NCBI GenBank assembly: GCA_043820105.1
Contig: JBDREC010000075.1
Location: 1-53,179 of the forward strand
Origin: JBDREC01 sp043820105 [NCBI: Pseudomonadota bacterium]
GTDB lineage: Bacteria > Bdellovibrionota_F > JAHFAK01
Direction: 5' to 3'
DNA length: 53,179 bases
Part shown: in pieces, positions 10,064 to 33,394 of the stretch
Layout of the letters: every line of letters starts with the position of its first letter
Position numbering within the stretch: position 1 is the stretch's first letter
Made by a program: the position numbers and the translations under genes
The notes under the pieces: generated by a model
The model's input: only the letters and a program-made list of their open reading frames with translations
Databases searched by the model: none
What the model was told of the DNA's origin: nothing

Positions 10064-10079
10064 TGCAATTTTGATACCA
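10064..10079 (-). promoter_or_regulatory. sigma-54 (-24/-12) promoter for the FHA-like protein
   Basis: Read on the minus strand: TGGTATCAAAATTGCA. GG and GC are ten bases apart and the -12 half is TTGCA. It is 38 bp upstream of the GTG at 10026. The TGGTAT variant of the -24 half also occurs at 17335-17350. The bases just upstream on this strand include CACCCCTT, also found upstream of the site at 27243. Confidence 0.7.
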
Positions 10080-10182
10080 AGTAAGGGGTGACTTTATCGT
10101 GTTTTATCAGTATATTACAAATGCTTAAATATCGTTTGTGCGACATTTTGAGAACAGGATGGTGCGAGATCTTTGACAAAGA

Positions 10183-10217
10183 ATTAATAATCAATAATTA
10201 TGAATTAATAATTAATT
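10183..10217. repeat. heptamer array, five units of ATTAATA type
   Basis: attaata, atcaata, attatga, attaata, attaatt in register, ending just before the ribosome-binding site of the sirtuin gene. Confidence 0.7.
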
Positions 10218-10229
10218 TCAAGGTGTATC

Positions 10230-10952
10230 ATGCAAAAATTGAAAGAATTTTTAAAATCTCAAGATAAAATAAAAATGGTCGTATTAACAGGTGCGGGTAT
10301 TAGTGCTGAGTCTGGGATAAAAACCTTTCGTGATAATAATGGTCTTTGGGAAACCCACAGAGTTGAAGAGGTGGCGACTCCCGAGGCATTTCAAAAGAAT
10401 GAAGAATTGGTCTATCGATTTTATAACTTAAGACGAACTCAGCTTTTGACCTGTGAACCCAATGAAGGTCATAAGGCATTAGTTGAAATTGAGGCTATGC
10501 TTGGAGATGATTATTTTTTGATTACACAAAATGTTGATGATCTTCATGAAAGAGCTGGCTCAAAAAGGCTCGTTCACATGCATGGAGAGATATTAAAAGC
10601 CAGATGTACTGTCTGTGAAAAAGTTTACGATTGGAAAGAAGACCTGGATCATACCCACAAATGTGTCTCCTGCCAAAACAAACTAAGACCACACATTGTT
10701 TGGTTTGGTGAGATGCCTTTTTATATGAATGAAATTTATAAGCTCATACAAAGCTGCAATCTTTTTGTTTCAATTGGAACTTCTGGAGCTGTTTATCCAG
10801 CTGCTGGCTTTTATCAGCTTGCTAAACAAAACAACGCCTTTACAGTTGAATTAAATGTAGAGGCTACTGGTGGAATGTTTGATGAAGTTATCCTTGGTAA
10901 AGCTTCTGAAGCAGTTGAAGTTTTAAAAGATGCTCTCTTAAAATGCACATGA
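10230..10952 (+). CDS. cobB: NAD-dependent protein deacylase, sirtuin family
   Basis: Sir2 enzyme removing acyl groups from lysines with NAD+. 240 residues. Motifs in order: GAGISAESGI and TFRDNNGLW (NAD binding), TQNVDDLHERAG, HMHGE with the catalytic His, a zinc ribbon formed by CTVC and CVSC, and RPHIVWFGE. The segment FYNLRR supplies the Tyr-x-x-Arg pair that in SIRT5/CobB-type (class III) sirtuins recognises negatively charged acyl groups, so desuccinylase or demalonylase activity is likely besides deacetylation. Preceded by CAAGGTG. Confidence 0.93.
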   Translation: MQKLKEFLKSQDKIKMVVLTGAGISAESGIKTFRDNNGLWETHRVEEVATPEAFQKNEELVYRFYNLRRTQLLTCEPNEGHKALVEIEAMLGDDYFLITQNVDDLHERAGSKRLVHMHGEILKARCTVCEKVYDWKEDLDHTHKCVSCQNKLRPHIVWFGEMPFYMNEIYKLIQSCNLFVSIGTSGAVYPAAGFYQLAKQNNAFTVELNVEATGGMFDEVILGKASEAVEVLKDALLKCT

Positions 10953-11041
10953 CTAACTCCTAATAAACCGATAAAAAGTCGTGACTTTCTATCAATACTG
11001 TGATAATATTACATCATTATAAAACAATACTTGGGCCTAAA

Positions 11042-12217: not shown

Positions 12218-12220
12218 AAT

Positions 12221-13891
12221 TTAATATCCAAAAACATACCATTTATCATTTGAAGAAGTTGAATATCTTGCAATTCCAAATTCCTCTTTTCCATCACCAT
12301 CTACATCGCCAGCTGCTACTGAAGTAACATAAGCACCTTCACCCCATCCATTTTGTGATTCTTCTACACTACAATCATGATATGTTGGATTTCCTCCACC
12401 ACATAATAAAATCGAGGCATCACTTTTATAAACATACCATCTTGGGTCTGCCTGGGCTGAAAATTCATTATTTGAATCTGCTAATCCTATAATAATTTCA
12501 TCATTTCCGTCCCCATTAAGATCTCCAAAAGAAAAATCATTTGCATAAATACCATCATTAAGATCAGAACCAAGTTCAACAACAATATTTCCATCTATAT
12601 CATAGGTTTTTAGTCTGCTATTTCCTGTTGTTGTCGTTTTTCTTGATATACCAACAACATTCGTACCGTCAATAACTCCAAAATCAATTCCAGTAACATT
12701 GGCTTCCCTTGAAACTCCGCCATTACCCTTTAGTAAATTCGTTAAACTACCACCATCATATTTATATACAAAAAATTTATCTGCCGTTGAGTTTTCAATT
12801 TTTCGCGCAATTCCAATCTCATCATTCCCATCACCGTCAAAATCCCCCATGGCGACATCTGTGGTATAGCTGGAAGTTGACCAGTTGGTTTCCGAAGTAA
12901 TCATGCAAGGATAATCACCATCATCATTATTTCCACCGCCACAAAATGTTTCGTCAAAAGAACCATTAATATATTTATAAACTGACCATCTGGGATATTT
13001 ATTATCACTAAATTCCGCTTCCTCTCCAAGATTATTAACGTCAACTTTCATTCTGCCTACCAATATTTCATCCGTGCCATCTCCATCAATATCACCCATG
13101 GCGATACTTGTGGGAACAATATACAAACCATATTCTGCCATTTCATAAAGATTGGTTCCCTGAGAGTTGTATATACGAACTGTAGGCCAAGCCAGCCCAT
13201 CTATTCCAGAATATGTTGCAACTGCCATGACATTTTCACCTGCGACAACACCAAACGCTGTGTCTACTACCCATTCATCAGCATCACATTCTGCTGTTCC
13301 ATCTATTATTTTTGTCTTATTTCCTTCAGAAACAAATTCATATGAAAAAAATCTTTTTGTTGTTGAATTACTTATAGCATATCTTGAAACACCAATATTC
13401 ATTTGATCATCATTTTCCAGATAGCCAAACGAAATTGAGGTTGCATAGTTACTGCTTCCCCATTCACCAGCCCCACCACCCGATAACAGTTCCTTGAAAT
13501 CACCAAAAATATTGGAAACTGCCTGAGGTGTTCTTTCTTTAATGGCTATTCCATTATCATCATCGTCGGCAGCACCACTTTCATCATCACAGGCATCACC
13601 AATTCCATCAGCATCTGTATCTGCCTGATCTTCATTTGCTATATCTACACAGTTATCTTCATCATCTAAAATACCATCAACATCAGTGTCAATATCAATA
13701 TCTCCATCTCCGTCTCCATCTCCGTCTCCATCTCCATTTCCGTCTCCGGGCGGTAATAACCCTGCTCCGCCTGGAGTTATATCCTCCGGAGTGTCAGGTT
13801 TTACAGATATGCCATTTGAACTGCATGAAAGGAAAGAAAAGAAGAAAAGGCTTATTATGATAACAAGTGAAATTTTGATTATAAGTTTCAT
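12221..13891 (-). CDS. lipoprotein with (GD)n spacer, TSP3 repeat and FG-GAP/VCBS repeats
   Basis: 556 residues. Signal peptide with lipobox FLSC (lipidated Cys23), then a spacer of about eight Gly-Asp pairs, then a calcium-type thrombospondin-3 repeat (DTDVDGILDDEDNC ... DADGIGDACDDE), then several FG-GAP-like repeats each with a D-x-D-G-D-G calcium loop (GDIDGDGTDEI, GDFDGDGNDEI, GDLNGDGNDEI, GDVDGDGKEEF) that should form a beta-propeller. Shares its propeller with the paralogue at 19293, including a closing NDKWYVF motif. SD GGGGG lies before the ATG. Probably surface-exposed. Confidence 0.85.
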   Translation of the reverse strand: MKLIIKISLVIIISLFFFSFLSCSSNGISVKPDTPEDITPGGAGLLPPGDGNGDGDGDGDGDGDIDIDTDVDGILDDEDNCVDIANEDQADTDADGIGDACDDESGAADDDDNGIAIKERTPQAVSNIFGDFKELLSGGGAGEWGSSNYATSISFGYLENDDQMNIGVSRYAISNSTTKRFFSYEFVSEGNKTKIIDGTAECDADEWVVDTAFGVVAGENVMAVATYSGIDGLAWPTVRIYNSQGTNLYEMAEYGLYIVPTSIAMGDIDGDGTDEILVGRMKVDVNNLGEEAEFSDNKYPRWSVYKYINGSFDETFCGGGNNDDGDYPCMITSETNWSTSSYTTDVAMGDFDGDGNDEIGIARKIENSTADKFFVYKYDGGSLTNLLKGNGGVSREANVTGIDFGVIDGTNVVGISRKTTTTGNSRLKTYDIDGNIVVELGSDLNDGIYANDFSFGDLNGDGNDEIIIGLADSNNEFSAQADPRWYVYKSDASILLCGGGNPTYHDCSVEESQNGWGEGAYVTSVAAGDVDGDGKEEFGIARYSTSSNDKWYVFGY

Positions 13892-14030: not shown

Positions 14031-14046
14031 TGCAAGTCTTGTGCCA
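14031..14046 (-). promoter_or_regulatory. sigma-54 promoter for the lipoprotein ending at 12221
   Basis: Minus strand TGGCACAAGACTTGCA: full agreement with TGGCAC-N5-TTGCA, ten bases from GG to GC. It is 140 bp upstream of the ATG at 13891; the gene-free stretch 13892-14158 otherwise holds only a heptamer array. Confidence 0.82.
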
Positions 14047-14158: not shown

Positions 14159-15307
14159 TTATTGTGCCATAATGCTATTATATAGTCTTTCAATATTTAA
14201 ATCGATTTTAGCTTCTGTAAGGGTTGCTGTTCCTGAAATATGAGCTTCAATTGGAAAAACTAAAATGTCAAATAACTCTTGTCCATAAGTTTGATCATCA
14301 TAACTTGATCCATCTGGGTTTTCTATATAAAGAGACCCTTCATCAACACCGGCAGCTCCATGAATCCCATTTTCAACTTTTAAATCAAAAGAAAGGCCTT
14401 CACTTGAATAGTCAGCTATAATATCAACAATTGCATCCCTAAAATATGTATGATAGCCAAATTCATTTGGTTCCTTACAATCCATCTGTCCTAGGCATAC
14501 CATTTCAATATTTCCATTATCATGGGTAACCTTCAATAATTCAACAGCTCCATTGCCTATATAAATTAAGGTAACATAAGGCATAGGACTCTCATCACAG
14601 ACATCGCCAATTCCATCTAAATCAGTATCCAGCTGGTCATCGTTTGAAACCAGAGCACAATTATCTTCAGCATCAACAAATAAATCATCATCATCATTGT
14701 CATCACAAGCATCACCCATTCCATCAGCATCGGTATCAACTTGATCTTCATTGTCGATTAATACGCAATTATCACTTATATCTTCAATTGAATCATTGTC
14801 ATTATTTGTATCACAGGCATCACCAATACCATCGGCATCTATATCTGCCTGGTCTTCATTGTCAATTAATGCACAATTATCACTGGTATCTTCAAATGAA
14901 TCGTTGTCATTATTTGTATCACAGGCATCATCGAGCCCATCTAAGTCTATGTCAGTTCCAATTCTGACAGATTCAGGACAAGCCTCCTCTGAATCATCGT
15001 CTTCTTCAGGTATTTGATTTTCTGGAAGCTCAACTTCTTCATCTTTATCTGGAGCTGGATCCTGAACTTCAGCCTCACAATGATCATAAACATTATTGGC
15101 ATTTAAATCTTCTGAGCTTTCGTCAAAAGTTCCTGCTTCCGTGTTTTCCAAATCTTCTAATGCAAGATCTATACTTACATAACATTCTTCAGGATATTCT
15201 AAAGTATCAAGTAAAGCTCGTTTTCCTTCATTGTTTCCACAGCTATAAAACAATGCAAATGAAGCGAATAAGATTAATAATAAAGATAATTTTAATAAAT
15301 GTTTCAT
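14159..15307 (-). CDS. lipoprotein with multiple TSP3 calcium-binding repeats
   Basis: 382 residues. Lipobox FYSC (Cys23), an acidic region (about 60-110), then five tandem TSP3-like repeats (pattern DNCALIDNEDQADIDADGIG, then DACD), and a C-terminal domain of about 150 residues (from about 235) that I do not recognise and that lacks the Cys-closed domain of its neighbours. SD AAGGAGG. It starts 84 bp downstream of the lipoprotein stop at 15392 and has no sigma-54 site of its own, so it is probably the second gene of that unit. Confidence 0.82.
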   Translation of the reverse strand: MKHLLKLSLLLILFASFALFYSCGNNEGKRALLDTLEYPEECYVSIDLALEDLENTEAGTFDESSEDLNANNVYDHCEAEVQDPAPDKDEEVELPENQIPEEDDDSEEACPESVRIGTDIDLDGLDDACDTNNDNDSFEDTSDNCALIDNEDQADIDADGIGDACDTNNDNDSIEDISDNCVLIDNEDQVDTDADGMGDACDDNDDDDLFVDAEDNCALVSNDDQLDTDLDGIGDVCDESPMPYVTLIYIGNGAVELLKVTHDNGNIEMVCLGQMDCKEPNEFGYHTYFRDAIVDIIADYSSEGLSFDLKVENGIHGAAGVDEGSLYIENPDGSSYDDQTYGQELFDILVFPIEAHISGTATLTEAKIDLNIERLYNSIMAQ

Positions 15308-15391: not shown

Positions 15392-17185
15392 CTATTTTTG
15401 TCCACCTCCCCAACCCTGACCCTGACATACATTACCAACACCATTATTATCATCATCTAGTTGTAGTGGATTAAAATTGTTTGGACAATTGTCAAAGGCA
15501 TCAATGATCCCATCTCCATCTGCATCATTATGTGCATTAGGTTCAGGTTCATTTGCCTGACAAAGTGCTAATTGCACTGGAACAAAAGCTTCATAAGCTG
15601 TAAATTCTGTATATTCTGCATTTTGTGAATCATATCCAGCGATTCTTATATAAAGTTCTTCCTCGTGAGATGATTCAAAGGCCACATTTTCAAAAACACA
15701 ATCAACTTCCCCATTATCAATATTACAGGAATAGAATGTATCTTGATGGGGTGACCAAAACAATGGGTCTCCATATGTTTCGAGATTATTCCCATCAACT
15801 GAATATCCCAACGGTCTGGTAGCATCACCGTTATTAATATCATAGAAATAAGTGTACTCAAAGTGATTAATTTGAGTTGTAATAACATAGTGATCAATTC
15901 CTTCAATAGAGACAAAAGAAATCACACTTCCAGTATATCCATCATTATCATAATCTTCTTCTGACATACAAAATTCAACATTTTCAACCATATTAAGAGG
16001 ATCATTTGAAAAGATAACTGATTGTGTTGTTAAAACAGTGGCAGCATAACCTGAAATTGGGTTCGCTATTGCTTCAATAATTACTGAAACAGAAGCAATT
16101 AGATCACTTGCAACAAGATTAATTAGCACACTATTTTCGGTAATTGAATAAACAATTTCAATATCATCTGATTGGTTAATATACTCAATGCTGTCAAAAT
16201 CTACTTGTGAATTATCTCTAAAAAGAATTTGACCTGTCATTGAAATCTCAAATGAATCAAACAAATTTGAATCAAGCAGATTCCCTTGATCATCATTTAC
16301 CATAATATCAAAGTCCATTGTCGAAGTATTTGTATTATGATCAGTATTGAGCATTAAGTTTTCAATAGATATAGAATATATCGTTGCAACTCCATCTATT
16401 TCAACAGCAACTACTGGAGCAAAATTTTCATCAACTGAAAAACTTAGATTTGAACAACCATCATTAGAACTAAGAATAAAATCATGTCTATAATTATTGC
16501 TTCCTTCTTCAGTTATTTCAAAACTCTGGGCAATATTATTTGATTCTCCAAGCATTGGAAGATCTTGAGTTGCAGTTTCAATATCATTAACAAAATATGT
16601 CATTTCAATTAAATATTCTGTCAAATCAATTTGAGCGCCATTATTATCAAATAAGGTAACTGATACATCCTTTTGATTTACTGCCACGTCTTCATAAACA
16701 GGAACAATTGATACTAGCTGAGTTGCGCCCAGACAAGTATTATCTTCTGTACCAATAAAAATTTCTATAGTAAGAGATTGAGAATCTACTCCTGGTTCTG
16801 AAGTAATAACAACTGAACTTTCAGTAAATGTAAGAGTTTCATTTCCATCACTAACTAAAATAGTAATATCAACTGTGATTCCTTTTTCTAAAAAGATTTC
16901 ACTAGCTGGTAAAAAAGAACCAGAGTCAAAAGTCATTGACATTGAATCATATAAAATCTCGCCATCATCTCTTGTAATAGTAATTGTAGCTGAAAGATCA
17001 TCACCTGTGATATCAGCTGCAAAAGATGCCTTAGCTGCAAAAGATAATGCTACCATTCCTTCTGGAGTAGCAATGACTTGATTGTTTGAATCATTTCCAG
17101 GATTAACGCTTGAATTATTGCCACTTGTACATCCTACAGTAAAAACAATAATAAAGCATAGAAAAGTTGATAATAACGTTTTCAT
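15392..17185 (-). CDS. large lipoprotein with FN3-like region and terminal TSP3 motif
   Basis: 597 residues. Lipobox TVGC (Cys19). Residues about 40-400 are beta-rich and Thr/Ser/Asp-rich, probably several Ig- or FN3-like domains. From about residue 400 (VEFCMSEEDYDNDG) a domain resembles the Cys-closed C-terminal domain of the neighbouring paralogues (ISFVSIEGIDHYVI, LYIRIAGYDSQNAEYTEF). It ends with a single TSP3 motif (DADGDGIIDAFDNCPNNFN). No (GD)n spacer. SD AGGGGGA. First gene of its transcription unit. Confidence 0.8.
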   Translation of the reverse strand: MKTLLSTFLCFIIVFTVGCTSGNNSSVNPGNDSNNQVIATPEGMVALSFAAKASFAADITGDDLSATITITRDDGEILYDSMSMTFDSGSFLPASEIFLEKGITVDITILVSDGNETLTFTESSVVITSEPGVDSQSLTIEIFIGTEDNTCLGATQLVSIVPVYEDVAVNQKDVSVTLFDNNGAQIDLTEYLIEMTYFVNDIETATQDLPMLGESNNIAQSFEITEEGSNNYRHDFILSSNDGCSNLSFSVDENFAPVVAVEIDGVATIYSISIENLMLNTDHNTNTSTMDFDIMVNDDQGNLLDSNLFDSFEISMTGQILFRDNSQVDFDSIEYINQSDDIEIVYSITENSVLINLVASDLIASVSVIIEAIANPISGYAATVLTTQSVIFSNDPLNMVENVEFCMSEEDYDNDGYTGSVISFVSIEGIDHYVITTQINHFEYTYFYDINNGDATRPLGYSVDGNNLETYGDPLFWSPHQDTFYSCNIDNGEVDCVFENVAFESSHEEELYIRIAGYDSQNAEYTEFTAYEAFVPVQLALCQANEPEPNAHNDADGDGIIDAFDNCPNNFNPLQLDDDNNGVGNVCQGQGWGGGQK

Positions 17186-17334: not shown

Positions 17335-17350
17335 TGCAAAATTTATACCA
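17335..17350 (-). promoter_or_regulatory. sigma-54 promoter for the lipoproteins at 15392 and 14159
   Basis: Minus strand TGGTATAAATTTTGCA: GG to GC ten bases, -12 half TTGCA, -24 half TGGTAT as at 10064. It is 150 bp upstream of the ATG at 17185. Confidence 0.68.
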
Positions 17351-18283: not shown

Positions 18284-19219
18284 TTATTGGCATTCTTCTA
18301 ACTCATGTGGCGTAATTGCTTGGGCAAACTCTGTAAAGGAAGTATAATCATCAACACTATTATATCCTGCTATTCTAATATGCAAAGAATCATCTCCAAC
18401 ACCATCATTTGTACTATCCCAGGCATATGCATCAATAAAGGCATAAACATACAAGCCATATAAAGCAAAAGAAAAATAATAGGAGCTTGTTGATTCAGTA
18501 AATTCTATTTCTGATAATTTTTTTACTTCAGATTCTGTCTTAAAAACATTATATTCCCATTGCAAACTAGTTGAAGCCGCAACTTTATAATAAACAAAAT
18601 CCGAAACAGAGCCATCATTTGATGCTGATCTGTCAACTTCAATCACATAATAAGCATATCCAGTATCAGGAAAAGAAATTTTTGTTGCTTTGCCTGTATC
18701 ATTATATCTGTCATCATAATCTCCATAGCCATTTGCGTAATCTTCATAACAAAATTCATTTATTGACTCCCAGCCAGGATCATCACAAAGCTGTTCTGAA
18801 TGATAAGAGTCAAATTCAGATCTACATAATAATGAAATTTCAGGTCCTGATTCACCATTGTATCCTGAGCCATAAGTTGTAAAATCCAACGAATTAATAT
18901 TTTGATTTAAATAGCCTGTTTTATTAATTCCACAGATCTCGTCATCACCCTCGCCATCACCCTCGCCATCACCCTCACTGTCACCCTCGTCGTCACCATC
19001 ACCATCGTCGTCACCATCACCATCTCCATCGCCGTCACCATCACCATCGCTGTCACCATCGCCGTCACCATCTCCATCGCCGTTGCCATCTGTATCTATA
19101 GTTGAAGAATCGCCAGCAACTTTAAGTTCGCCACTAGAACAAGAAATAATAAATGAAGAAAGAATTATTATGCTTGAAAAAAAACATAAAAAGATAAAAA
19201 GATTTGATAAACGTTTCAT
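18284..19219 (-). CDS. lipoprotein with acidic (GD)n spacer and Cys-closed FN3-like domain
   Basis: 311 residues. Lipobox IISC (Cys27), then an acidic spacer of about 50 residues of Gly-Asp pairs mixed with SD, DD, EG and SEGD units, then the shared domain from ISLLCRSEFDSYHS to the final HELEECQ. Landmarks: ATKISFPDTGYAYYVIEVDR, DFVYYKVAA, LHIRIAGYNSVDDYTSF. Closest to the protein at 28581. SD GGGGGG. It starts 73 bp after the stop of the gene at 19293, with only a heptamer array between, so it is probably second in that unit. Confidence 0.83.
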   Translation of the reverse strand: MKRLSNLFIFLCFFSSIIILSSFIISCSSGELKVAGDSSTIDTDGNGDGDGDGDGDSDGDGDGDGDGDGDDDGDGDDEGDSEGDGEGDGEGDDEICGINKTGYLNQNINSLDFTTYGSGYNGESGPEISLLCRSEFDSYHSEQLCDDPGWESINEFCYEDYANGYGDYDDRYNDTGKATKISFPDTGYAYYVIEVDRSASNDGSVSDFVYYKVAASTSLQWEYNVFKTESEVKKLSEIEFTESTSSYYFSFALYGLYVYAFIDAYAWDSTNDGVGDDSLHIRIAGYNSVDDYTSFTEFAQAITPHELEECQ

Positions 19220-19292: not shown

Positions 19293-20723
19293 TTAAAAGT
19301 CATAAACAAACCACTTATCATTAGATCCTGTGGCATATCTTGCAATACCGATTTCATCTCTGCCATCACCATCAACATCACCCATTGCAACATCAGAAGT
19401 ATAAAAATCTTCTCCCCAGCCTGACATATCTTCAACCATACACTGGTCATAACTTACTTCTCCACCACCGCAGAAAAGTTCATTTCCATCTTTATCGTAA
19501 ACATTCCATCTGGAATATTTTTTATCTGAAAATTCGCCGTCTTCATCATTTCTGCCAACTACAAATTCGTCATTTCCATCACCATCAATATCACCAAAGG
19601 CAATATCTGTTGCATAAATTGTTCCACCCCAGGCAGAACCGGCTTTTGTTACGCTATCTGCTGACATATCATAAACAACAATTCTATCAGAACCATTTGT
19701 AGTTTCATTTAAAGAAACACCAACAACTCCTTTTCCTTCGAAATATCCAAGGTCAATGCCTGTTGGCCAAGTATTAGATTTTGGGGTTGTGCCTGAAATA
19801 ACAAGGTCTAAAGCGCCATCATTATATTCATAAACAAACCATTTATCATTGTCGCCATCCTGTTTCCTTGCAATAGCGATTTCGGCCATTCCGTCGCCAT
19901 CAATATCTTTTACAGCTAAGTCTGTAACATAAGAAGTTTCTCCCCAACTTGTTGCGCTATTAACCATGCAATCATTATAATCAGGAGCTCCGCCACCACA
20001 GAAAAGTGCATTTCCATCTTTATCATAAATATACCATCTGGCTTGTTCGCTTGATGAAAACTCATCTCCTGTATGTCTTCTTCCAACTATTATTTCGTCA
20101 TTACCATCACCATCTATATCACCAGCCACCAGAGCTGAAGCGTAAATACCTTCTCCCCAGCCTTCAGCCATTCCAAAAACTTTAGATCCATTTTCATCAT
20201 AAGCTTTTATTCTTTCTTGGCCATTTGTATAAATACTTCTTGCCATAACAGCCACTTTTTGACCATCAACCTCAGCAAATGCCATTCCTGTTACTACAAC
20301 ATCACCTGTTGAGCCAGCAGCGCCTGATTCAACCAAAGAAATATCTGAGCCGTCATATTCATAAGCATACCAACGGTCGCCACTTCTTTCAGAGCTTGCT
20401 ACTCCAATTTCCATTGAACCATTAGATGTAAATTGACCAAAGGTTATTACCCTTGTATAAAGGTCAGAAGCCCATTGACCATCTCCACCGCCAGATGCGA
20501 TTAAGTCTAAATCTCCGTCATAGCTTCCATCATAATCTTCACCATCATCATCTTCAGGATCATTGTCACCATCGCCATCGCCATCTCCGTCACCAGAATC
20601 ACCATCTCCGTCACCTTGAACGATTGGATCTTCTGAATTTTTTGTTTCTGAACATGACATAATTGATGTTGCCGCAAAGGCAAAAATTAGAAATAGAATA
20701 GATAATTTAATAAATTCCCTCAT
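19293..20723 (-). CDS. lipoprotein with (GD)n spacer and FG-GAP propeller
   Basis: 476 residues. Lipobox IMSC (Cys24), a short Gly-Asp spacer interrupted by S and N, an NDPEDDD acidic linker also seen in the protein at 24924, then FG-GAP repeats with calcium loops (GDIDGDGNDEI, KDIDGDGMAEI, GDIDGDGNDEF, GDVDGDGRDEI). Repeats alternate with an FCGGG motif. Paralogue of the protein at 12221. SD AAGGAGC. First gene of its unit. Confidence 0.85.
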   Translation of the reverse strand: MREFIKLSILFLIFAFAATSIMSCSETKNSEDPIVQGDGDGDSGDGDGDGDGDNDPEDDDGEDYDGSYDGDLDLIASGGGDGQWASDLYTRVITFGQFTSNGSMEIGVASSERSGDRWYAYEYDGSDISLVESGAAGSTGDVVVTGMAFAEVDGQKVAVMARSIYTNGQERIKAYDENGSKVFGMAEGWGEGIYASALVAGDIDGDGNDEIIVGRRHTGDEFSSSEQARWYIYDKDGNALFCGGGAPDYNDCMVNSATSWGETSYVTDLAVKDIDGDGMAEIAIARKQDGDNDKWFVYEYNDGALDLVISGTTPKSNTWPTGIDLGYFEGKGVVGVSLNETTNGSDRIVVYDMSADSVTKAGSAWGGTIYATDIAFGDIDGDGNDEFVVGRNDEDGEFSDKKYSRWNVYDKDGNELFCGGGEVSYDQCMVEDMSGWGEDFYTSDVAMGDVDGDGRDEIGIARYATGSNDKWFVYDF

Positions 20724-20822: not shown

Positions 20823-20838
20823 AGCAATTATCGTGCCA
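20823..20838 (-). promoter_or_regulatory. sigma-54 promoter for the lipoproteins at 19293 and 18284
   Basis: Minus strand TGGCACGATAATTGCT: matches TGGCACG-N4-TTGCT, GG to GC ten bases. About 100 bp upstream of the ATG at 20723. The rest of the gap to hipB (20840-21000) shows nothing I can name. Confidence 0.85.
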
Positions 20839-24923: not shown

Positions 24924-25670
24924 TTAACAATCATCAATATCACGATGATATTTCTCCCCAGTTGATGATCCCCATCCAGAGGAATCAATTTGCCCATCAT
25001 CCAAATTAAAACCCTGGACTCTGATTTCCATTAGCTGATCATAGTCACCGTCTTGGTCTGCATCCATTTGACCATCATCCATGTGAATCCAGGTGTATTC
25101 ACCGTGTTCAATAAAATAATAATAATCACCCTTTTCGTAACCTGCATTCAAGCCCTTTTGAGAAATCTCCTCATCACCATATTGTTCATAGTATTTATTC
25201 CACTCATTGGCATCTTTGGCATTTATTTTATAATAGCGATATTCACTTTTGCTATTATTATTTTCATATAATGGTCTTCTAACTTCAATCACATAGTATT
25301 CATATTCAAGATTTGGAATACGAATTCGCATAGCATTTCCATCTCTAACAGTGAGGTCAGAAAAGTCACCATGACCATCGGAAAGGTAGGTTCCCCAATC
25401 TAAAAAATGATCATAAGAATCATAAGGTGACCAACAAACACCGTAAACTTTCGGTGTTGAAGGTTCAGATTCATCATCAGCTGTTGGATCATCGTCTTCA
25501 GGATTATGATCGCCGTCGCCATCACCGTCACCGTCGCCGTCGCCGTCGCCATCGCCATCACCTTCGACTTGTGGGTTTTCCGAATCCCTTGTGTCACCAC
25601 AAGAAATCACCAATGTACTTACCATAAAAATAAGTGCGATTAAAAATAGGATTTTAATTAAAGTTTTCAT
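24924..25670 (-). CDS. lipoprotein with (GD)n spacer and Cys-closed FN3-like domain
   Basis: 248 residues from the ATG at 25670, chosen because GGGAG lies just upstream and the signal peptide (MKTLIKILFLIALIF) then starts at residue 1; an upstream in-frame ATG at 25700 would add ten residues before it. Lipobox VISC (Cys24), about nine Gly-Asp pairs, HNPEDDD linker, then the shared domain from YGVCWSPYDSYDH to the terminal RDIDDC, with MRIRIPNLEYEYYVIEVRR, YRYYKINAK and MEIRVQGFNLDD. Closest to the C-terminal part of the protein at 25723, from which it is 52 bp away. Confidence 0.83.
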   Translation of the reverse strand: MKTLIKILFLIALIFMVSTLVISCGDTRDSENPQVEGDGDGDGDGDGDGDGDGDHNPEDDDPTADDESEPSTPKVYGVCWSPYDSYDHFLDWGTYLSDGHGDFSDLTVRDGNAMRIRIPNLEYEYYVIEVRRPLYENNNSKSEYRYYKINAKDANEWNKYYEQYGDEEISQKGLNAGYEKGDYYYFIEHGEYTWIHMDDGQMDADQDGDYDQLMEIRVQGFNLDDGQIDSSGWGSSTGEKYHRDIDDC

Positions 25671-25722
25671 TTTTATCTCCCAAGATTTAAAATAATACAA
25701 TATTATATTTAGGTTTTAATTT

Positions 25723-27084
25723 TTAAAGTTCATGATACCATTGAATATCGCTATGAAACAACTCGCCACTTGATTGTCCCCAAGAACTCTTTGTACCATC
25801 AGAGTTTAATCCCATGACTTTAATTTCAAATTTATCATCAGTATTATAGTCATCATCATCAGCATCCAACATCTTATTATCAATGAATATATATGTACTT
25901 GAATCATCATGTGTTATATAATAAAAATAGTCTCCCTGACTAAAATTTTGGCCATTCATGCTTTTCTCACTAATATCATTAGAGGCAAATTTAAATTCCA
26001 AGTTTTCCCAATCATCATCACTGGTCCCATTTAAATTTCCATTAATCTTGTAATAGACATATTGATTTGAATCGCCAGCTAAATTCATTCTATCAACTTC
26101 AATAATATAATAATCATATTCCAACCTATCAACCTCGATCCGCATAGCATTACCAAAAGGTAGGTTTGCAAAATCATACACTATATCACTTATTTCACCA
26201 TGTCCTTCTGATACCCAATCATAATGAATGCCAGTAATATCAAGATAAATATATGCCTCTCCTAAATCCCAATAAGAATCTTTATTTGACCAGCATAAAG
26301 AGTCTGGGGAAATGTCCGGTGCAACCAAATCATCATCTCCATCTCCATCTCCATCTCCATCACCATCTCCACCATTATCATTATCACATGCATCGCCGAT
26401 TCCATCACCATCAGAATCGACTTGATACATCCCCATGATAACATTTGAAACAGAGGGGCAATTATCATCACAATCGCCAAACCCATCACCGTCACTATCC
26501 GCATTACAATCAACATCACCGTCTCCATCACCGTCTCCATCTCCATCTCCATCACCATCTCCACCATTATCATTATCACATGAATCGCCAATTCCATCAC
26601 CATCAGAATCATATTGAGTTGAATTTATCACATCAACACAGTTATCATAACAATCCATAATAGTATCTCCGTCTGTATCAATTTCACAGCTTGGATCAGT
26701 AGCACTCGTTGCATCTGTTCCATCACAATCCTGATCAATCCCATCATCCATTACATCCGTTGCTCCAATATAAATAGTAGGTTCAGCATCATCACAGTCA
26801 CCTTCGTCTTCAGTAAATCCATCACCATCATCATCTGCTGAAGGATCTCCTTCATCACCGTCACCCGGAGTCTCACAAAGATCACCAATCCCATTGCCAT
26901 CACTATCTAATTGGCTTGGATTGACAATTAAAGGACAGTTATCAACATCATCTGTCCAGGTGTCACCATCTGAATCCATCTTAGCTGGATCAACAGTGAT
27001 ATCTCCGCCAGAACATGATATAAGTGATGTAATGATAAAAATAAGAACAGTTAATAAAGAAATGCTTTGAATCATACGTTTCAT
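25723..27084 (-). CDS. lipoprotein with TSP3 repeats, two (GD)n spacers and FN3-like domain
   Basis: 453 residues from the ATG at 27084 (SD AAGGGGG; an upstream ATG at 27168 would run through a heptamer array). Lipobox LISC (Cys24). Several TSP3 repeats (DSDGDTWTDDVDNC, DTDGDTIMDCYDNC, DSDGDGFGDCDDNC), a MopE-like DCDDAEPTIYIGATD ... IDQDCDG motif, two separate (GD)n runs each following a DNDNGG sequence, then the shared domain (LCWSNKDSYW, MRIEVDRLEYDYYIIEVDR, YVYYKING, FEIKVMGLNSDG). It ends HSDIQWYHEL, so the closing Cys of its paralogues is missing. Confidence 0.85.
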   Translation of the reverse strand: MKRMIQSISLLTVLIFIITSLISCSGGDITVDPAKMDSDGDTWTDDVDNCPLIVNPSQLDSDGNGIGDLCETPGDGDEGDPSADDDGDGFTEDEGDCDDAEPTIYIGATDVMDDGIDQDCDGTDATSATDPSCEIDTDGDTIMDCYDNCVDVINSTQYDSDGDGIGDSCDNDNGGDGDGDGDGDGDGDGDVDCNADSDGDGFGDCDDNCPSVSNVIMGMYQVDSDGDGIGDACDNDNGGDGDGDGDGDGDDDLVAPDISPDSLCWSNKDSYWDLGEAYIYLDITGIHYDWVSEGHGEISDIVYDFANLPFGNAMRIEVDRLEYDYYIIEVDRMNLAGDSNQYVYYKINGNLNGTSDDDWENLEFKFASNDISEKSMNGQNFSQGDYFYYITHDDSSTYIFIDNKMLDADDDDYNTDDKFEIKVMGLNSDGTKSSWGQSSGELFHSDIQWYHEL

Positions 27085-27102
27085 AGTGCCCCCTTGGTTT
27101 GA

Positions 27103-27130
27103 GTCGTAAGTCGTAAGTGGTAAGTTGTAA
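27103..27130. repeat. heptamer array, four units of GTCGTAA/GTGGTAA type
   Basis: gtcgtaa, gtcgtaa, gtggtaa, gttgtaa, between lipoprotein start and sigma-54 site. Confidence 0.8.
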
Positions 27131-27242
27131 GTAAGGCTCACCACAAACAAAAAAAAGGCTTCCAGCATTAAAGCAAAAAAATCTTGCCTAATACTAAAAA
27201 CCCCTCATTACTTATAAAAATAAGTATTCTGAAGATCTTTAG

Positions 27243-27258
27243 TGCAAACTTGGTGCCA
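27243..27258 (-). promoter_or_regulatory. sigma-54 promoter for the lipoproteins at 25723 and 24924
   Basis: Minus strand TGGCACCAAGTTTGCA: TGGCAC, ten bases GG to GC, TTGCA. About 160 bp upstream of the ATG at 27084. Confidence 0.8.
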
Positions 27259-28580: not shown

Positions 28581-29474
28581 TCAGCAGCCATCCAAATCTG
28601 CTGGAGTTATATAGCCATCATATAATGTGAAACTTGTATAATCAGATTCTGAATTGTAGCCAGCTACTTTTATTTCAAGATCATCGTCACCATCGCCATC
28701 ATCATCAGAGTCCCAAATTGATGTATCAATAAAAAAAGCATTTTCAAGACCCGGCAGATAAAAGGACTGATAATAATAGGTTCCTGTATTGAAAACAATA
28801 TCTGATAAATTCATTTCTTCTGTGGAGTTTGCTACTTTATAATGTATCCAGCTATTATAACTGTTTGCTTCTAATTTAAAATAATAGTATTTACCATCTT
28901 CTCCGTCTATAAATTCTGTCCTGTTTACTTGAATTACATAATAATCATATTCAATAGTGCTGAGAGAAATTCTGGTAGCCTTGCCATCTTCCCGCATGAA
29001 GTCAATCATTTCACCGTGTCCATCGCTAGAGCTGCAATAGTTTTCACCCCAAATATTTTCCTCCCATGAACCATCATGACACAAACTTTCATTATGAAAA
29101 GAATCAAGAGTTGATTTACAAAATCCATTAATTTCTGGTCCTGCCTCTCTAATTGGAATGGGCCTAAAAGGCAATCTGCCATCACCATCGCCATCGCCAT
29201 CGCCATCGCCGTCACCGTCGCCATCTCCATCACCATCACCGTCGCCATCTCCATCGCCATCGCCATCGCCATCGCCATCTCCATCACCGTCGCCGTCGCC
29301 ATCTCCATCACCGTCGCCATCACCGTCGCCGTCGCCTGAAAACAATCCTGATCCACCATCCTGTTCTTGCTCATTAACCTTAATTTCAGATCCACCACAG
29401 GACATGATCATTAGAAATGAGAAAAGACTTAATAAAATAAAAATTACCGAAAAGATTTTAAATAGCTTTTTCAT
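28581..29474 (-). CDS. lipoprotein with 26 Gly-Asp pairs and Cys-closed FN3-like domain
   Basis: 297 residues. Lipobox IMSC (Cys26), a short linker, then an uninterrupted run of 26 Gly-Asp pairs (29181-29336), then the shared domain from EINGFCKSTLDSFHNE to the last residues ADLDGC. Landmarks: ATRISLSTIEYDYYVIQVNR, YYYFKLEAN, LEIKVAGYNSESDYTSF. Closest to the protein at 18284 (also GPEI... start and DYTSFT... end). SD AGGGGAG. Its own sigma-54 site lies 186 bp upstream. Confidence 0.85.
   Translation of the reverse strand: MKKLFKIFSVIFILLSLFSFLMIMSCGGSEIKVNEQEQDGGSGLFSGDGDGDGDGDGDGDGDGDGDGDGDGDGDGDGDGDGDGDGDGDGDGDGDGDGDGRLPFRPIPIREAGPEINGFCKSTLDSFHNESLCHDGSWEENIWGENYCSSSDGHGEMIDFMREDGKATRISLSTIEYDYYVIQVNRTEFIDGEDGKYYYFKLEANSYNSWIHYKVANSTEEMNLSDIVFNTGTYYYQSFYLPGLENAFFIDTSIWDSDDDGDGDDDLEIKVAGYNSESDYTSFTLYDGYITPADLDGC
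29181..29336 (-). repeat. hexanucleotide coding repeat, 26 x GGNGAY
   Basis: 26 tandem 6-bp units encoding (Gly-Asp)26. Third-position variation (GGT/GGC/GGA with GAT/GAC) shows several expansion events rather than one. Confidence 0.95.
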
Positions 29475-29574: not shown

Positions 29575-29606
29575 CTTGTTCTCTTGCGCTCTTGTTCTCT
29601 TGTTCT
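29575..29606. repeat. octamer array, four units of CTTGTTCT type
   Basis: cttgttct, cttgcgct, cttgttct, cttgttct. The same octamer type occurs upstream of greA (43493). Confidence 0.75.
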
Positions 29607-29659
29607 CTTGATTAGTTTAGGATGTGAAATATAGAATTTTAAGTTTCAGGTTTAGTTTT

Positions 29660-29675
29660 TGCAAAGATTGTGCCA
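29660..29675 (-). promoter_or_regulatory. sigma-54 promoter for the lipoprotein at 28581
   Basis: Minus strand TGGCACAATCTTTGCA: TGGCAC, ten bases GG to GC, TTGCA. Confidence 0.82.
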
Positions 29676-29934
29676 GACACACTAGTTATAACCGATCGAT
29701 ATTGTTGACAATTTAAAAGCGACATTTCAAGATTATGTCAAACTTGCCTAAATAAAGCAAAATAATTGAAGGACTGCCTGATATTAACACAATTGAGAAT
29801 ATTGTCCCCTCACACATTATTCTAAACAATAAATATTACATTTTATTAAACCAATAAAATTTTTTACAACTAAAGCAAAACAACAGAAGCTTCATAATCT
29901 AAACCCAAACCAACACCGTTTCGAAGACCAAACC

Positions 29935-29977
29935 GTGACGGCACCGAAGCCGAGAGACGATACGGGCTTCGTCACCG
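29935..29977. other. GC-rich stem-loop, possible structured RNA
   Basis: A GC-rich island (about 29910-29985) in otherwise very AT-rich DNA. Stem GTGA/TCAC (29935-29938 with 29972-29975) and CGAAGCC/GGCTTCG (29945-29951 with 29965-29971), 6-nt bulge, 13-nt loop. It lies just downstream of the lipoprotein stop at 30027 on that strand. No U-run follows, so it is not a standard terminator. The rest of 29676-29910 has no gene. Confidence 0.4.
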
Positions 29978-30026
29978 AAACCGGAGATTTTAATATTTTA
30001 AAAAAATTTATAAGGACGACCTATCG

Positions 30027-31421
30027 CTAACAAAGTGGCACGCTATTCACATCAGACGGTGTCCCAACAGGAATCTCTTCGCTCCAGTCACTTAATACTA
30101 ACGCATTAGGATCAAAGGCTCTTATTCTGATTGTCAGCTCATCATCATAAAGACCATTATCATCACGATTGTCTGTTATCCAGCTATCAACATAAAAACT
30201 TGAATAATCATTGTCACGTTCACTTTTGTAATATCTTGATATAACGCCAAACTCAGCTGCAATTAATTCATCATCAGTAGCTTCAATGGTATCAGAAGAA
30301 TAATAATTAATATCCTGCCAATCATTTACATATTTATTAAATTTATAATAAACATAATTATCATTATTTGTTCCGCTTTGATAAAACTCTATAATATACC
30401 ATCTAAAATTCATAACATGATTAAAGCTTATTTTTAAAGCTTCATAGCCAACACTATAATCTGAATCCTCGGCAGACATACAAAAAGAAATTTCGTTTGG
30501 CATATCATTGTCACCATGATATTGATCTGCGCCGTCTAAGACACCATCATCATCTGAGTCAGCATCATTTGGATTTAAGTGAGCAGGATGATTTATTTCT
30601 TCATAATCTGTTAAACCATCAAAATCTGAATCTGCTTCATTTGGATTCGGATGTGAAGGATGATTAACTTCTTCATAATCTGTCATAAGATCACCATCTG
30701 TATCAGCTTCACTTGGGTCTGTACTTGGGCCACCTTCTACGACTTCTTCGTAATCTGTTAGACCGTCATCATCAGTATCTGCATCATTTGGATCTGAGAT
30801 ATAAGAATCCTGTTCAAAAAGATAATTTAATTCTTCCCTATCTGTTAATAAATCGCCATCAGTATCAGCATTTAATGGGTCAATATTATAATCAGCATAA
30901 GTTATAATTTCTTCATAATCAGTAAAGCCATCCCCGTCAGTGTCTTGAACTAATGGATCTGTTCCATGAAGAGCTTCATCTTCGTCACTCAAGCCATCTT
31001 CATCTGTGTCAATATCTTCATCTCCATCACCATCACCATCACCGTCGCCGTCACCGTCTCCATCTCCATCTCCATCGCCATCTCCATCGCCATCGCCATC
31101 GCTATCACCATCACCGTCTCCGTCTCCATCTCCATCGCCATCGCCATCACCATCTCCGTCACCGTCGCCATCGCCGTCACCATCACCGTCGCCGTCACCG
31201 ACTGGATCTTCAACAACTACACAACAAGTCAAAAAAGCTACATCTTCCTCACTCGTTATGTCTTCATAAACAACTTCAATTTCATCAAGGCAAACTAAAT
31301 CACAAGTTTCAACTAGCATTTCAAGATCCAAGGTTTTTAATTCTTCTCCGTTGTTTCCTGAAGAACAGGAAAATAATAAGATTGAAAGAATGGATAATAA
31401 AATAAAATAATGCTTTTTCAT
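30027..31421 (-). CDS. lipoprotein with 30-unit GD spacer, calcium repeats and FN3-like domain
   Basis: 464 residues. Lipobox LFSC (Cys19); a short Cys-rich block ([14 protein letters not shown] ... DITSEED ... CC) shared with the protein at 31497; a run of 30 dipeptides (29 GD and one SD; 31020-31199); then about six TSP3/EF-hand-like repeats of the [12 protein letters not shown] type, as in adhesion proteins; finally the Cys-closed domain ([43 protein letters not shown], final Cys). SD AGGGGGA. Probably last gene of the 32413-31497-30027 unit. Confidence 0.85.
31020..31199 (-). repeat. hexanucleotide coding repeat, 30 units
   Basis: 30 tandem 6-bp units encoding Gly-Asp, one changed to Ser-Asp. 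Confidence 0.95.
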
Positions 31422-31496
31422 AAAATTCCCCCTAAATGGTTATATTTTTTTAATCCCCCATGCCTAAGCTTGTATTTTTTTTAATAAATAAAATTA

Positions 31497-32372
31497 TTAG
31501 CAGTCATCAATATCAGTGCCTGGAATCCCAAGTCCCAATTCTACACTACTTTCAGAATAGCTAGCAACTCCAAACCTTCCAAAACCTGGAGCAAATCCTG
31601 AAATTGATATAGAAACAGATCTTTCATAGTTTTGCTCACTAAGATACCCTGTAAAAAAAGCACAACTGAATGTATCTTCATCAATATCTTCACAAAAATA
31701 TTCGCTATAAGAATCAAAAATAAAATCATTATCATTAAGATCATCTTTTGAATACATGTCATTAACGACATCAAGTTGTGTTATATTAAACCTAAAATAT
31801 TCAAGATGACTTCCTGATTCTTCTGTTAAAATATAATAGGAATCGAAATATAATGCTTTATTAAATGTTATTTTAATTCCATCATTAACATAATTTGTAG
31901 TTAGGCAATAAGATGTAATTACTGGATATTCTAATAGTAGATCGCCATCGCCGTCGCCGTCGCCGTCGCCATCACCATCGCCATCACCGTCTCCATCGCC
32001 GTCACCATCACCGTCGCCATCGCCGTCACCGTCGCCATCACCATCGCCATCACCGTCTCCATCGCCGTCACCATCACCGTCTCCATCGCCGTCACCATCA
32101 CCGTCGCCATCGCCGTCACCGTCACCGTCGCCGTCGCCATCACCTGCTACATTTGCACAGCAATATTGAAAATAAGCATTTTCTTCACTTGTAATGTCAG
32201 CATATTCAACAGAAAAACTATCCAGGCAACTTGCATCACACATATCAACAAGCATTTCTTGAGTTAATACACCTTCTGTTTCCTTACCATTTTCAATAGT
32301 TGCTTCTCCTGAACATGCTAAATAAGTGAATGATAAAGATGTTAAAAATAATGTTAGTAATAACTTTTTCAT
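31497..32372 (-). CDS. lipoprotein with 34 Gly-Asp pairs and FN3-like domain
   Basis: 291 residues. Lipobox YLAC (Cys20); Cys-rich block MLVDMCDASCLDSF ... DITSEEN ... CC, as in the protein at 30027; 34 uninterrupted Gly-Asp pairs (31941-32144); then the shared domain (ITSYCLTTNYVNDG, YFDSYYILTEESG, VSISISGFAPGFG, final IDDC). SD GGGGGAG. Between genes at 30027 and 32413 with gaps of 75 and 40 bp. Confidence 0.84.
   Translation of the reverse strand: MKKLLLTLFLTSLSFTYLACSGEATIENGKETEGVLTQEMLVDMCDASCLDSFSVEYADITSEENAYFQYCCANVAGDGDGDGDGDGDGDGDGDGDGDGDGDGDGDGDGDGDGDGDGDGDGDGDGDGDGDGDGDGDGDGDGDGDLLLEYPVITSYCLTTNYVNDGIKITFNKALYFDSYYILTEESGSHLEYFRFNITQLDVVNDMYSKDDLNDNDFIFDSYSEYFCEDIDEDTFSCAFFTGYLSEQNYERSVSISISGFAPGFGRFGVASYSESSVELGLGIPGTDIDDC
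31941..32144 (-). repeat. hexanucleotide coding repeat, 34 units, with higher-order duplication
   Basis: 34 tandem 6-bp units encoding (Gly-Asp)34. A block starting at 31965 is repeated from 32031 (66-bp period, identical for about 50 bp), and the second block holds a further 24-bp internal duplication, so recent expansion happened in multi-unit steps. Confidence 0.93.
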
Positions 32373-32412
32373 TTTTACTCCCCCAAAAATATATATCTAC
32401 TAATTTTAAACC

Positions 32413-33288
32413 TTAAATTACTCCTAAATAAACACAGATTCGGGCACTAACAGTGACGCTTTCAATATCACTATCATATGAAACATCACCATTTGCACTA
32501 TTTGACTCAACTACATAGAAACTATGAACAGAATCATCACTTAAACCTACAATTGGCTGTAGATCAGGAAAAAAGATGTATGAATCAACAGAGCAAATAA
32601 TTTCAGTTCCTTCAACACTACATGTAAAGCTAGAACTTCCTGGATCATTAGATGAATATGCAACTCTGGTAGTACTTTCATCGGTAACATAATAAACTAT
32701 GTATTCATCATAGTCAGCTAAAGTAGTCCAAGAAAGCGTAATCCCTAATACACCTCCTGTACTACAAGATGATGCATTGATGTCTGAAGGTTTTTCACTA
32801 ATTAATGGATCATACCCAAGTGCTATTTCATCATTATCATTTACACCATCACCATCTGTATCTAAAATCGCAGGATCAGTTCCGTTAAATCTCTCAATCT
32901 CATCACTTATTCCATCACTATCACTATCATCACAAGCATCACCAATTAAATCGGCATCATAATCTTCTTGATCTATATTAATAATACTTTCACAATTATC
33001 ACAAAGATCACCTAGGCCATCGCCATCTGTATCTAGTTGGTCTAGGTTTTCGATATCAACACAATTATCTTCTGTATCAATTATTGTGTCTCCATCAGTG
33101 TCAATATCAACATCGCCATCACCATCTCCATCGCCATCACCATCTCCGTCACCATCTCCATCACCGACAATTTGGGCATTGGGGTCAGTTAATGGAACGG
33201 ATGCTTCTCCAGAACAAGATAATAAAATTAATTGTGTCATGAAAAGGATTGCAATGATAATTACAATATATAATGATTTGCTTTTCAT
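32413..33288 (-). CDS. lipoprotein with (GD)n spacer, TSP3 repeats and FN3-like domain
   Basis: 291 residues. Lipobox LLSC (Cys25), about nine Gly-Asp pairs, TSP3 repeats (DTDGDTIIDTEDNC, DADLIGDACDDS, DTDGDGVNDNDE), then a domain of about 125 residues (SSCSTGGVLGITLSWTTLAD, YDEYIVYYV, HSFYVVESNSANG) that follows the fibronectin type III pattern more closely than its paralogues and suggests what their shared domain is. SD AGGGGG. First gene of a three-gene unit. Confidence 0.84.
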   Translation of the reverse strand: MKSKSLYIVIIIAILFMTQLILLSCSGEASVPLTDPNAQIVGDGDGDGDGDGDGDGDGDVDIDTDGDTIIDTEDNCVDIENLDQLDTDGDGLGDLCDNCESIINIDQEDYDADLIGDACDDSDSDGISDEIERFNGTDPAILDTDGDGVNDNDEIALGYDPLISEKPSDINASSCSTGGVLGITLSWTTLADYDEYIVYYVTDESTTRVAYSSNDPGSSSFTCSVEGTEIICSVDSYIFFPDLQPIVGLSDDSVHSFYVVESNSANGDVSYDSDIESVTVSARICVYLGVI

Positions 33289-33378
33289 ATTTGCCCCCTA
33301 AGTACAAAACCCCGTGAAAAACTCACGCGATGACTTAAATAAATTAAATAACTATTTTAAAGTTTCATGCATTTATTA

Positions 33379-33394
33379 AGCAATTCACATGCCA
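33379..33394 (-). promoter_or_regulatory. sigma-54 promoter for the lipoproteins at 32413, 31497 and 30027
   Basis: Minus strand TGGCATGTGAATTGCT: ten bases GG to GC, TTGCT; one change in the -24 half. 90 bp upstream of the ATG at 33288. Confidence 0.75.

What the first reader, a model, noticed from the sequence alone, without database searches (positions are those of the whole stretch)
10064..33394. A sigma-54 regulon of lipoproteins: seven -24/-12 promoters, one per transcription unit
On the minus strand I find TGGCAC/TGGTAT plus TTGCA/T with exactly ten bases between GG and GC at 10064, 14031, 17335, 20823, 27243, 29660 and 33379. The last six sit 90-190 bp upstream of the first gene of every lipoprotein unit and together cover all eleven lipoproteins; the first precedes the FHA-like exported protein. 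Housekeeping genes in the window show no such site. This implies coordinated, enhancer-dependent expression of the whole lipoprotein set. The activator is not in the window.
Basis: partly seen in the sequence, partly recalled or inferred. Interest (0 to 1): 0.85.

Follow-up and report, generated by a model that had tools for sequence, protein, structure and literature searches.

The report
Sigma-54 promoters driving surface lipoprotein cluster
In a 23-kilobase stretch of an unplaced bacterium, every transcription unit for eleven lipoproteins starts with the same rare promoter type (sigma-54), so the cell probably switches this lipoprotein coat on together; the parts are ordinary, but seeing that sigma factor directly in charge of a whole lipoprotein set is unusual.

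Summary
TGGYA-N6-TTGCW occurs exactly seven times in the window, at the stated coordinates, all minus strand; shuffles average 0.76, and the 14 other spacers tried give 0-2 each. All 6 lipoprotein units have a site 74-185 bp upstream, against 1 of 16 other units. The five TGGCAC/TGGCAT sites are the five best sigma-54 matrix matches in the window. The two TGGTAT sites (17335, 10064) are weak by sequence: 17335 rests on position, and 10064 is the least certain.

The sigma-54 reading is well supported, but rpoN could not be tested in this organism (no genome held). It is present in 54 of 56 genomes of a related phylum. In four of those genomes, intergenic copies of the strict motif point into genes (57 with a gene start in their direction, 2 only the other way) and precede lipoprotein genes three times more often than background (18/70 vs 61/725, p = 5e-5). 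That signal comes mainly from two genomes.

One shared activator is inference: no activator signature is in the window, and no shared upstream element was found. Sigma-54 control of the cell exterior is a known theme; direct control of a whole lipoprotein cluster is a less usual instance.

The parts
10064..10079 (-). -24/-12 site TGGTATCAAAATTGCA, 37 bp before the FHA/HopA1-domain protein
   Evidence: weak by matrix (14.2 bits): least certain member
14031..14046 (-). -24/-12 site TGGCACAAGACTTGCA, unit A
   Evidence: (19.7 bits)
17335..17350 (-). -24/-12 site TGGTATAAATTTTGCA, unit C-B
   Evidence: weak by matrix (14.2 bits), supported by position
20823..20838 (-). -24/-12 site TGGCACGATAATTGCT, unit E-D
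   Evidence: (20.6 bits, best in window)
27243..27258 (-). -24/-12 site TGGCACCAAGTTTGCA, unit G-F
   Evidence: (19.6 bits)
29660..29675 (-). -24/-12 site TGGCACAATCTTTGCA, unit H
   Evidence: (19.7 bits)
33379..33394 (-). -24/-12 site TGGCATGTGAATTGCT, unit K-J-I
   Evidence: (18.3 bits)
12221..13891 (-). lipoprotein A: lipobox, GD run, FG-GAP beta-propeller
   Evidence: model of the propeller pLDDT 80, pTM 0.87; best PDB matches integrin alpha heads, other beta-propellers below them
14159..15307 (-). lipoprotein B: TSP3 (calcium-type) repeats
15392..17185 (-). lipoprotein C
18284..19219 (-). lipoprotein D: (GD)n stalk plus C-terminal domain shared with F, G, H
19293..20723 (-). lipoprotein E: GD run, FG-GAP propeller, 41% identical to A
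24924..25700 (-). lipoprotein F (true start probably Met11)
25723..27168 (-). lipoprotein G (true start probably Met29, at 27084): (GD)n and TSP3-like repeats
28581..29474 (-). lipoprotein H: long (GD)n stalk
30027..31421 (-). lipoprotein I: (GD)n plus bacterial TSP3 repeats
31497..32372 (-). lipoprotein J: (GD)n stalk of about 68 residues
   Evidence: the script classifier called it SP, lipobox YLAC read by eye
32413..33288 (-). lipoprotein K: GD run, TSP3-like repeats (below the Pfam cut-off)
8122..10026 (-). exported protein with FHA domain and HopA1-family domain (possible seventh unit)
   Evidence: Pfam PF00498 and PF17914

Best explanation
The six lipoprotein units are transcribed by RNA polymerase carrying sigma-54 (RpoN). 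Each -24/-12 site holds a closed complex that stays silent until an AAA+ enhancer-binding protein, itself turned on by some signal, melts it; the units therefore tend to be switched on together. The products are lipoproteins (type II signal peptide, Cys, no Asp at +2), most with an acidic, probably calcium-binding (GD)n/TSP3 stalk and some with a propeller or other predicted beta-rich head, so the switch most likely remodels the outer surface (adhesion, matrix or cell-cell contact). Shown: motif, spacing, polarity, position, lipoprotein signals, and recurrence of the association in some relatives. Inferred: that the organism's RpoN uses the sites, that an activator (probably one, possibly several) acts on them, surface location and adhesive role.
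For: Seven exact sites against 0.76 expected, all in gene orientation. Only the 6-base spacer is enriched. 6 of 6 lipoprotein units against 1 of 16 others (p 9.4e-5; 1 of 15 without the untestable edge gene). The top five matrix scores in the window are all lipoprotein sites. Upstream of the -24 box only A and E of 21 unit pairs align at p < 0.03, so the boxes are kept where the flanks are not. rpoN in 54 of 56 genomes of the phylum containing the Silvanigrellales record. In four genomes of that phylum with all sites examined, TGGCAYN5TTGCW exceeds its reversed control (G268 30 vs 9, G274 36 vs 3, G253 26 vs 6, G297 17 vs 1). Of their 109 sites 37 lie in genes; of the 72 others, 57 have a gene start in their direction, 2 only in the other, 13 none. 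Lipoprotein genes follow 18 of 70 sites that have a downstream gene, against 61 of 725 background genes (p = 5e-5) or 36 of 374 genes with an upstream gap of at least 80 bp (p = 5e-4). Strict sites: 5 in 53 kb here against 2.2-6.5 per Mb in nine genomes there. Sigma-54 as controller of the bacterial exterior, lipoproteins included: PMC3162934 (passages read).
Against: No genome is held, so rpoN and activators of this organism are unseen. No common upstream element was found in 220 bp upstream of the six lipoprotein sites. Two sites (17335, 10064) are TGGTAT and score at chance level without position. Sigma-70-like sites also lie in these AT-rich regions, for example at 17407-17379 upstream of C and 29665-29636 over the H site (112 found in 11900-31800 against 93.4 in shuffles), so sigma-70 transcription is not excluded. 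The lipoprotein families have no relative found: D/F/G/H domain 0 of 56 genomes at E 0.01 and 0 of 377 Myxococcota genomes at E 0.001, propeller 0 of 56 at E 1e-8, so the sites cannot be footprinted. In relatives the lipoprotein link is significant only in G268 (p 0.012) and G274 (p 0.0085), not in G253 (p 0.11) or G297 (p 0.43); in G268 exported proteins as a whole are not enriched (10/22 vs 87/231, p 0.31). In five further genomes, four of them sampled in part, 0 of 14 sites with a gene preceded a lipoprotein by the classifier. In the Myxococcota genome G178 the motif is hardly above control (13 vs 10) and precedes no lipoprotein.
Confidence: 0.87

Rival explanations
1. The sites are true sigma-54 promoters but there is no single regulon: several activators with different signals each serve one or two units, so the lipoproteins are alternatives, not a coordinated set. 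(This overlaps with the best explanation and disputes only the joint control.)
For: No shared upstream element. Relatives hold many PF00158 proteins: by my count of rows above 140 bits, 14 in G268 and 21 in G274 (not all need be sigma-54 activators; the family rings in all 14 control genomes). The units carry different heads (propeller, D/F/G/H domain, others).
Against: All units are in one cluster and on one strand with near-identical promoters; upstream elements of activators are often degenerate and some activators need none (recalled), so a negative search is weak.
Confidence: 0.4
2. The sites are copies carried along when lipoprotein genes duplicated in tandem, without meaning for present regulation.
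For: A and E are paralogues (41% identity) and align both upstream of the -24 box and in the leader; the leaders of A/G, A/H and C/G also show short matches at p < 0.03, partly 7-base repeats; D/F/G/H share a domain.
Against: No other of 21 pairs reached p < 0.03 upstream of the -24 box, while both boxes and the spacer are kept in all six units; unused inherited promoters would have drifted like their flanks.
Confidence: 0.06
3. The motif is a binding site of another regulator, or a repeat element, that resembles a -24/-12 promoter.
For: No transcription data exist.
Against: Fixed 6-base spacer, one orientation in the window and gene-ward orientation in relatives (57 vs 2); the site is not a palindrome (by eye).
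Confidence: 0.04
4. Chance matches in AT-rich DNA.
For: A matrix scan does give chance hits, and the two TGGTAT sites score no better than these.
Against: 0 of 100 shuffles reach seven; 6 of 7 random sites falling in the 250 bp before the six units has p about 5e-11.
Confidence: 0.01

Closest known systems
Sigma-54 (RpoN) regulons controlling the bacterial exterior (Francke et al. 2011, PMC3162934, passages read)
   Same: Sigma-54 promoters associated with genes for surface components, lipoproteins named among them
   Different: In the passages read the link is to transport and biosynthesis of precursors, inferred across genomes; here it is the structural lipoprotein genes themselves, six units in one cluster
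Borrelia RpoN-RpoS pathway (PMC3037356, start of abstract seen in search listings)
   Same: Sigma-54 and an enhancer-binding protein govern a set of membrane lipoproteins
   Different: There sigma-54 activates rpoS and RpoS controls the lipoprotein genes; here the -24/-12 sites lie directly before the lipoprotein units
Myxococcus surface proteins MtsC and CglD (NCBIfam names)
   Same: Acidic TSP3-type or GD-rich repeats in exported proteins
   Different: Matches cover repeats only and lie far below the curated cut-offs (76.9 against 350 bits for G and MtsC; 24.8 against 400 for I and CglD); no homology claimed
Predicted sigma-54 regulons over 33 bacterial classes (PMC12316311, abstract and passages read)
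   Same: Same promoter consensus (TGGCAC-N5-7-TTGCT) and a matrix approach
   Different: The main text names lipoproteins once and Bdellovibrio not at all

Membership tests
sigma-54-dependent promoter | GG and GC with ten bases between, within TGGCAC/TTGCW context | tested here: met
   7 of 7 sites; TGGTAT variant in two
sigma-54-dependent promoter | More frequent than chance, oriented and close upstream of genes | tested here: met
sigma-54-dependent promoter | rpoN in the genome | not testable with these tools
   no genome held; related phylum 54 of 56
sigma-54-dependent promoter | Enhancer-binding protein | tested here: inconclusive
   no GAFTGA- or ESELFGH-type signature in six frames of the window; relatives have PF00158 proteins; rest of the genome unseen
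sigma-54-dependent promoter | Upstream activator sites shared by co-regulated units | tested here: inconclusive
   dyad search no better than 12 shuffles
sigma-54-dependent promoter | Transcription start about 12 nt after the -12 box | not testable with these tools
   needs 5' end mapping
bacterial lipoprotein | Type II signal peptide with lipobox Cys | tested here: met
   10 of 11 by script, with 0 of 35 other window genes called; J by eye
Borrelia-type RpoN-RpoS cascade | -24/-12 site before rpoS rather than before the lipoprotein genes | tested here: not met
   -24/-12 sites lie directly upstream of the lipoprotein units; whether the organism has RpoS was not tested

The most novel reading that the evidence does not exclude
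In this lineage, and in some large-genome members of the related phylum containing the Silvanigrellales record, sigma-54 has become the standing sigma factor for outer-surface lipoproteins: a single signal and activator exchange the whole stalked, calcium-binding surface coat at once, for example on contact with prey, kin or a surface.
Probability: 0.25. Interest if true: 0.7.

Novelty: new member of a known kind. Interest (0 to 1): 0.5.

Why it matters
It ties a lipoprotein cluster of unknown function to one regulatory logic that can be tested, and gives a handle (the activator) for finding out when such cells change their surface. The enrichment in relatives (18/70 vs 61/725 over four genomes, carried by two) suggests that sigma-54 control of lipoprotein structural genes recurs in that neighbourhood of the tree. 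I did not see this stated in the papers found (searches, seen as listings; passages of PMC12316311 and PMC3162934).

Tried and rejected
Chance and wrong-spacer controls rejected coincidence. Tandem duplication of promoters was tested by pairwise local alignment with shuffles: supported for A/E only. A shared upstream element was sought by a 4+4 dyad count against shuffles: nothing. A sigma-70 and terminator scan was uninformative. Close relatives were sought with CdaA in genome contigs: 18 loci at 34-45% identity, none close. GlmM in 235 genomes of the Myxococcota sample and 58 of the Silvanigrellales phylum gave 57% at best among full-length listed matches. Gene order ftsH-cdaA-ybbR-glmM-pdxJ occurs in both; PdxJ is 46-52% in the second and 27-31% in the first among the loci compared, so I call the window an unplaced lineage near both; no tree was built. 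Lipoprotein profiles A1 and A2 found nothing in viral contigs, in 56 genomes (E 0.01 and 1e-8), or for A1 in 377 genomes; the tool warns that an empty answer without a positive control shows nothing. The FHA/HopA1 protein had no match in 56 genomes at E 1e-5. The model of the D/F/G/H domain was too poor to use (pLDDT 42). The Pfam match of GD runs to TrAA12 I take as low complexity. A possible DUF4143-type remnant at 27.3-28.6 kb was not confirmed (tblastn E 0.37).

Selection to note: I saw the lipoprotein link first in 9 of 30 sites of G268, then fetched all its sites, so the G268 test is partly post hoc; G274 (all 36 sites) is the cleaner one. G268, G274, G253 and G297 were my choice. Control counts of the other searched genomes: G246 4 vs 0, G266 20 vs 2, G248 23 vs 2, G270 17 vs 10, G271 18 vs 5, G178 13 vs 10. 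The G253 background comes from contigs that carry sites, which should raise it. The lipoprotein classifier was written from general rules and then checked on the window; it misses some lipoproteins (three more G268 sites look like lipoproteins by eye), and a relaxed variant gave the same direction. Background regions were picked at round coordinates, or as whole or nearly whole contigs for G253, plus the glmM regions already held (L049, L054, L056).
Full report
What was claimed.

The motif is there and is not chance. TGGYANNNNNNTTGCW has exactly seven matches in the window, at the seven coordinates given, all minus strand; 100 dinucleotide shuffles average 0.76 and never reach seven. Varying the spacer from 0 to 14 bases leaves only the canonical 6-base spacer enriched (7; each other 0-2), and the reversed pattern gives none. 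By a hand-made sigma-54 matrix whose weights I recalled, the five best sites in the window are the five TGGCAC/TGGCAT sites of lipoprotein units (18.3-20.6 bits; the next is 15.6). The two TGGTAT sites, 17335 and 10064, score 14.2; at 14 or more, 9 sites were seen and 2.2 expected from simulated sequence.

Position. Among ORFs of at least 100 aa a simple rule gives 22 transcription-unit starts. All 6 lipoprotein units have a site within 300 bp, 74-185 bp before the called start; 1 of the 16 others does, the FHA protein at 37 bp (exact p 9.4e-5). One of the 16, at the window edge, has no upstream sequence; without it the count is 1 of 15 (p about 1.3e-4, by hand). Gaps inside units (22-84 bp) lack sites. 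So 17335 is credible by position despite its sequence; 10064 is the least certain. A terminator-like scan gave no support for unit ends (4 against 8.7 in shuffles), and sigma-70-like sites are about as common as AT-rich sequence makes them (112 against 93.4, sd 9.5), some of them near the sigma-54 sites of C and H (11900-31800 only).

The genes. Eleven minus-strand ORFs carry a lipobox: a script classifier, the eleventh (J) is read by eye, and it calls none of the other 35 window genes. Nine have GD runs; several have TSP3-type repeats, and A and E have FG-GAP repeats. D, F, G and H share a C-terminal domain; A and E are 41% identical. The A propeller models well (pLDDT 80, pTM 0.87); its best PDB matches are integrin alpha heads (E about 1e-9, 12-14% identity, TM about 0.55), with other beta-propellers such as DDB1 close below. 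That is a resemblance of fold and suggests binding, not membership. The FHA protein also carries a HopA1-family domain (PF17914, E 1e-7).

Copied or kept? Of 21 pairs, only A and E align upstream of the -24 box at p < 0.03; the leaders align for A/E and more weakly or shortly for A/G, A/H and C/G. The boxes and spacer are nevertheless present in all six units, which fits selection on the promoter rather than recent copying. A search for a common upstream element found nothing beyond shuffles. No activator signature occurs in six frames of the window; regulators seen are a LysR protein, a histidine kinase and a receiver-only response regulator.

Relatives. No genome is held for the window. A CdaA scan of genome contigs found only 34-45% matches. 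The block ftsH-cdaA-ybbR-glmM-pdxJ is shared with Myxococcota (the phylum of a Sandaracinaceae record) and with the phylum of a Silvanigrellales record; PdxJ is closer to the latter. In that phylum rpoN is present in 54 of 56 genomes searched. The strict motif TGGCAYN5TTGCW occurs 30, 36, 26 and 17 times in genomes G268, G274, G253 and G297, against 9, 3, 6 and 1 for the reversed control. Of these 109 sites, 37 lie inside genes; 42 have a gene start only in their own direction, 15 on both sides, 2 only the other way and 13 none.

Lipoproteins in relatives. A second rule, used for the gene classes, sets aside 32 sites as coding and 7 without a gene. Of the remaining 70, 18 precede a lipoprotein gene against 61 of 725 background genes (p = 5e-5), or 36 of 374 genes with at least an 80-bp upstream gap (p = 5e-4). 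By genome: G268 7/22 vs 25/231 (p 0.012; exported proteins of any kind 10/22 vs 87/231, p 0.31); G274 6/23 vs 18/253 (p 0.0085; exported 15/23 vs 76/253, p 0.001); G253 4/15 vs 11/99 (p 0.11); G297 1/10 vs 7/142 (p 0.43). Against: in G246 (4 of 4 sites), G248 (6 of 23), G266 (9 of 20), G270 (6 of 17) and G271 (6 of 18) the classifier found a lipoprotein after 0 of 14 sites that have a gene. The Myxococcota genome G178 has 13 sites against 10 control and no lipoprotein. So the association recurs but is not universal.

What is known. Francke et al. [quoted passage not shown] In Borrelia sigma-54 controls lipoproteins through RpoS (PMC3037356, start of abstract in the listing). A 2025 survey (PMC12316311, abstract and passages) uses the same consensus. 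Direct sigma-54 control of a whole multi-unit lipoprotein cluster was not named in what I read.

Verdict. A real sigma-54 lipoprotein regulon: confidence 0.87 for sigma-54 use of the lipoprotein sites, about 0.6 for joint control by one activator, and about 0.6 for the FHA unit. The kind is known; the content and the density (5 strict sites in 53 kb against 2.2-6.5 per Mb in nine genomes of the related phylum) are unusual.

Noticed in passing
window 4752-4788, 8090-8124, 10182-10216, 13910-13940, 17243-17276, 19259-19291, 20742-20770, 24890-24921, 29506-29529, 33817-33841, 33955-33986, 39936-40050, 44077-44156, 51395-51421 (also 27102-27132): Fourteen intergenic tandem arrays with a 7-base unit (3.4-16.4 copies), nearly all with different unit sequences, in 8,250 bp of intergenic DNA; 30 simulated intergenic sequences gave none of period 7, and 20-kb regions of G268, G274 and G297 gave 0, 0 and 1. 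Five of six lipoprotein leaders have one, but so do other genes, so it looks like a genome-wide habit. Heptamer direct repeats of one unit are reported for marine Beggiatoaceae (PMC4679880, search listing only).
   Followed up: partly
window 8122-10026: Exported protein combining an FHA domain with a HopA1-family domain; no match in 56 genomes of the Silvanigrellales phylum at E 1e-5.
   Followed up: partly
window 21000-21098: Three near-copies of a palindrome of the form ATACC-N-GGTGTA shortly before two adjoining genes with the N-terminal and C-terminal HipA domains (21304-21633 and 21630-22568), as one would expect of an operator of a HipB-type regulator; read by eye.
   Followed up: no
window 27300-28500: 1.3-kb gap without a long ORF; by eye it may hold a broken AAA/DUF4143-type gene, but tblastn with the two such genes of the window is not significant (E 0.37).
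   Followed up: partly
loci L102, L107, L108 (genome G268): Three lipoproteins on different contigs, alike by eye, each preceded at 37-38 bp by a strict sigma-54 site.
   Followed up: no
window 24231-24488: Small protein of the 23S rRNA intervening-sequence family (PF05635); no search for rRNA genes was run.
   Followed up: no
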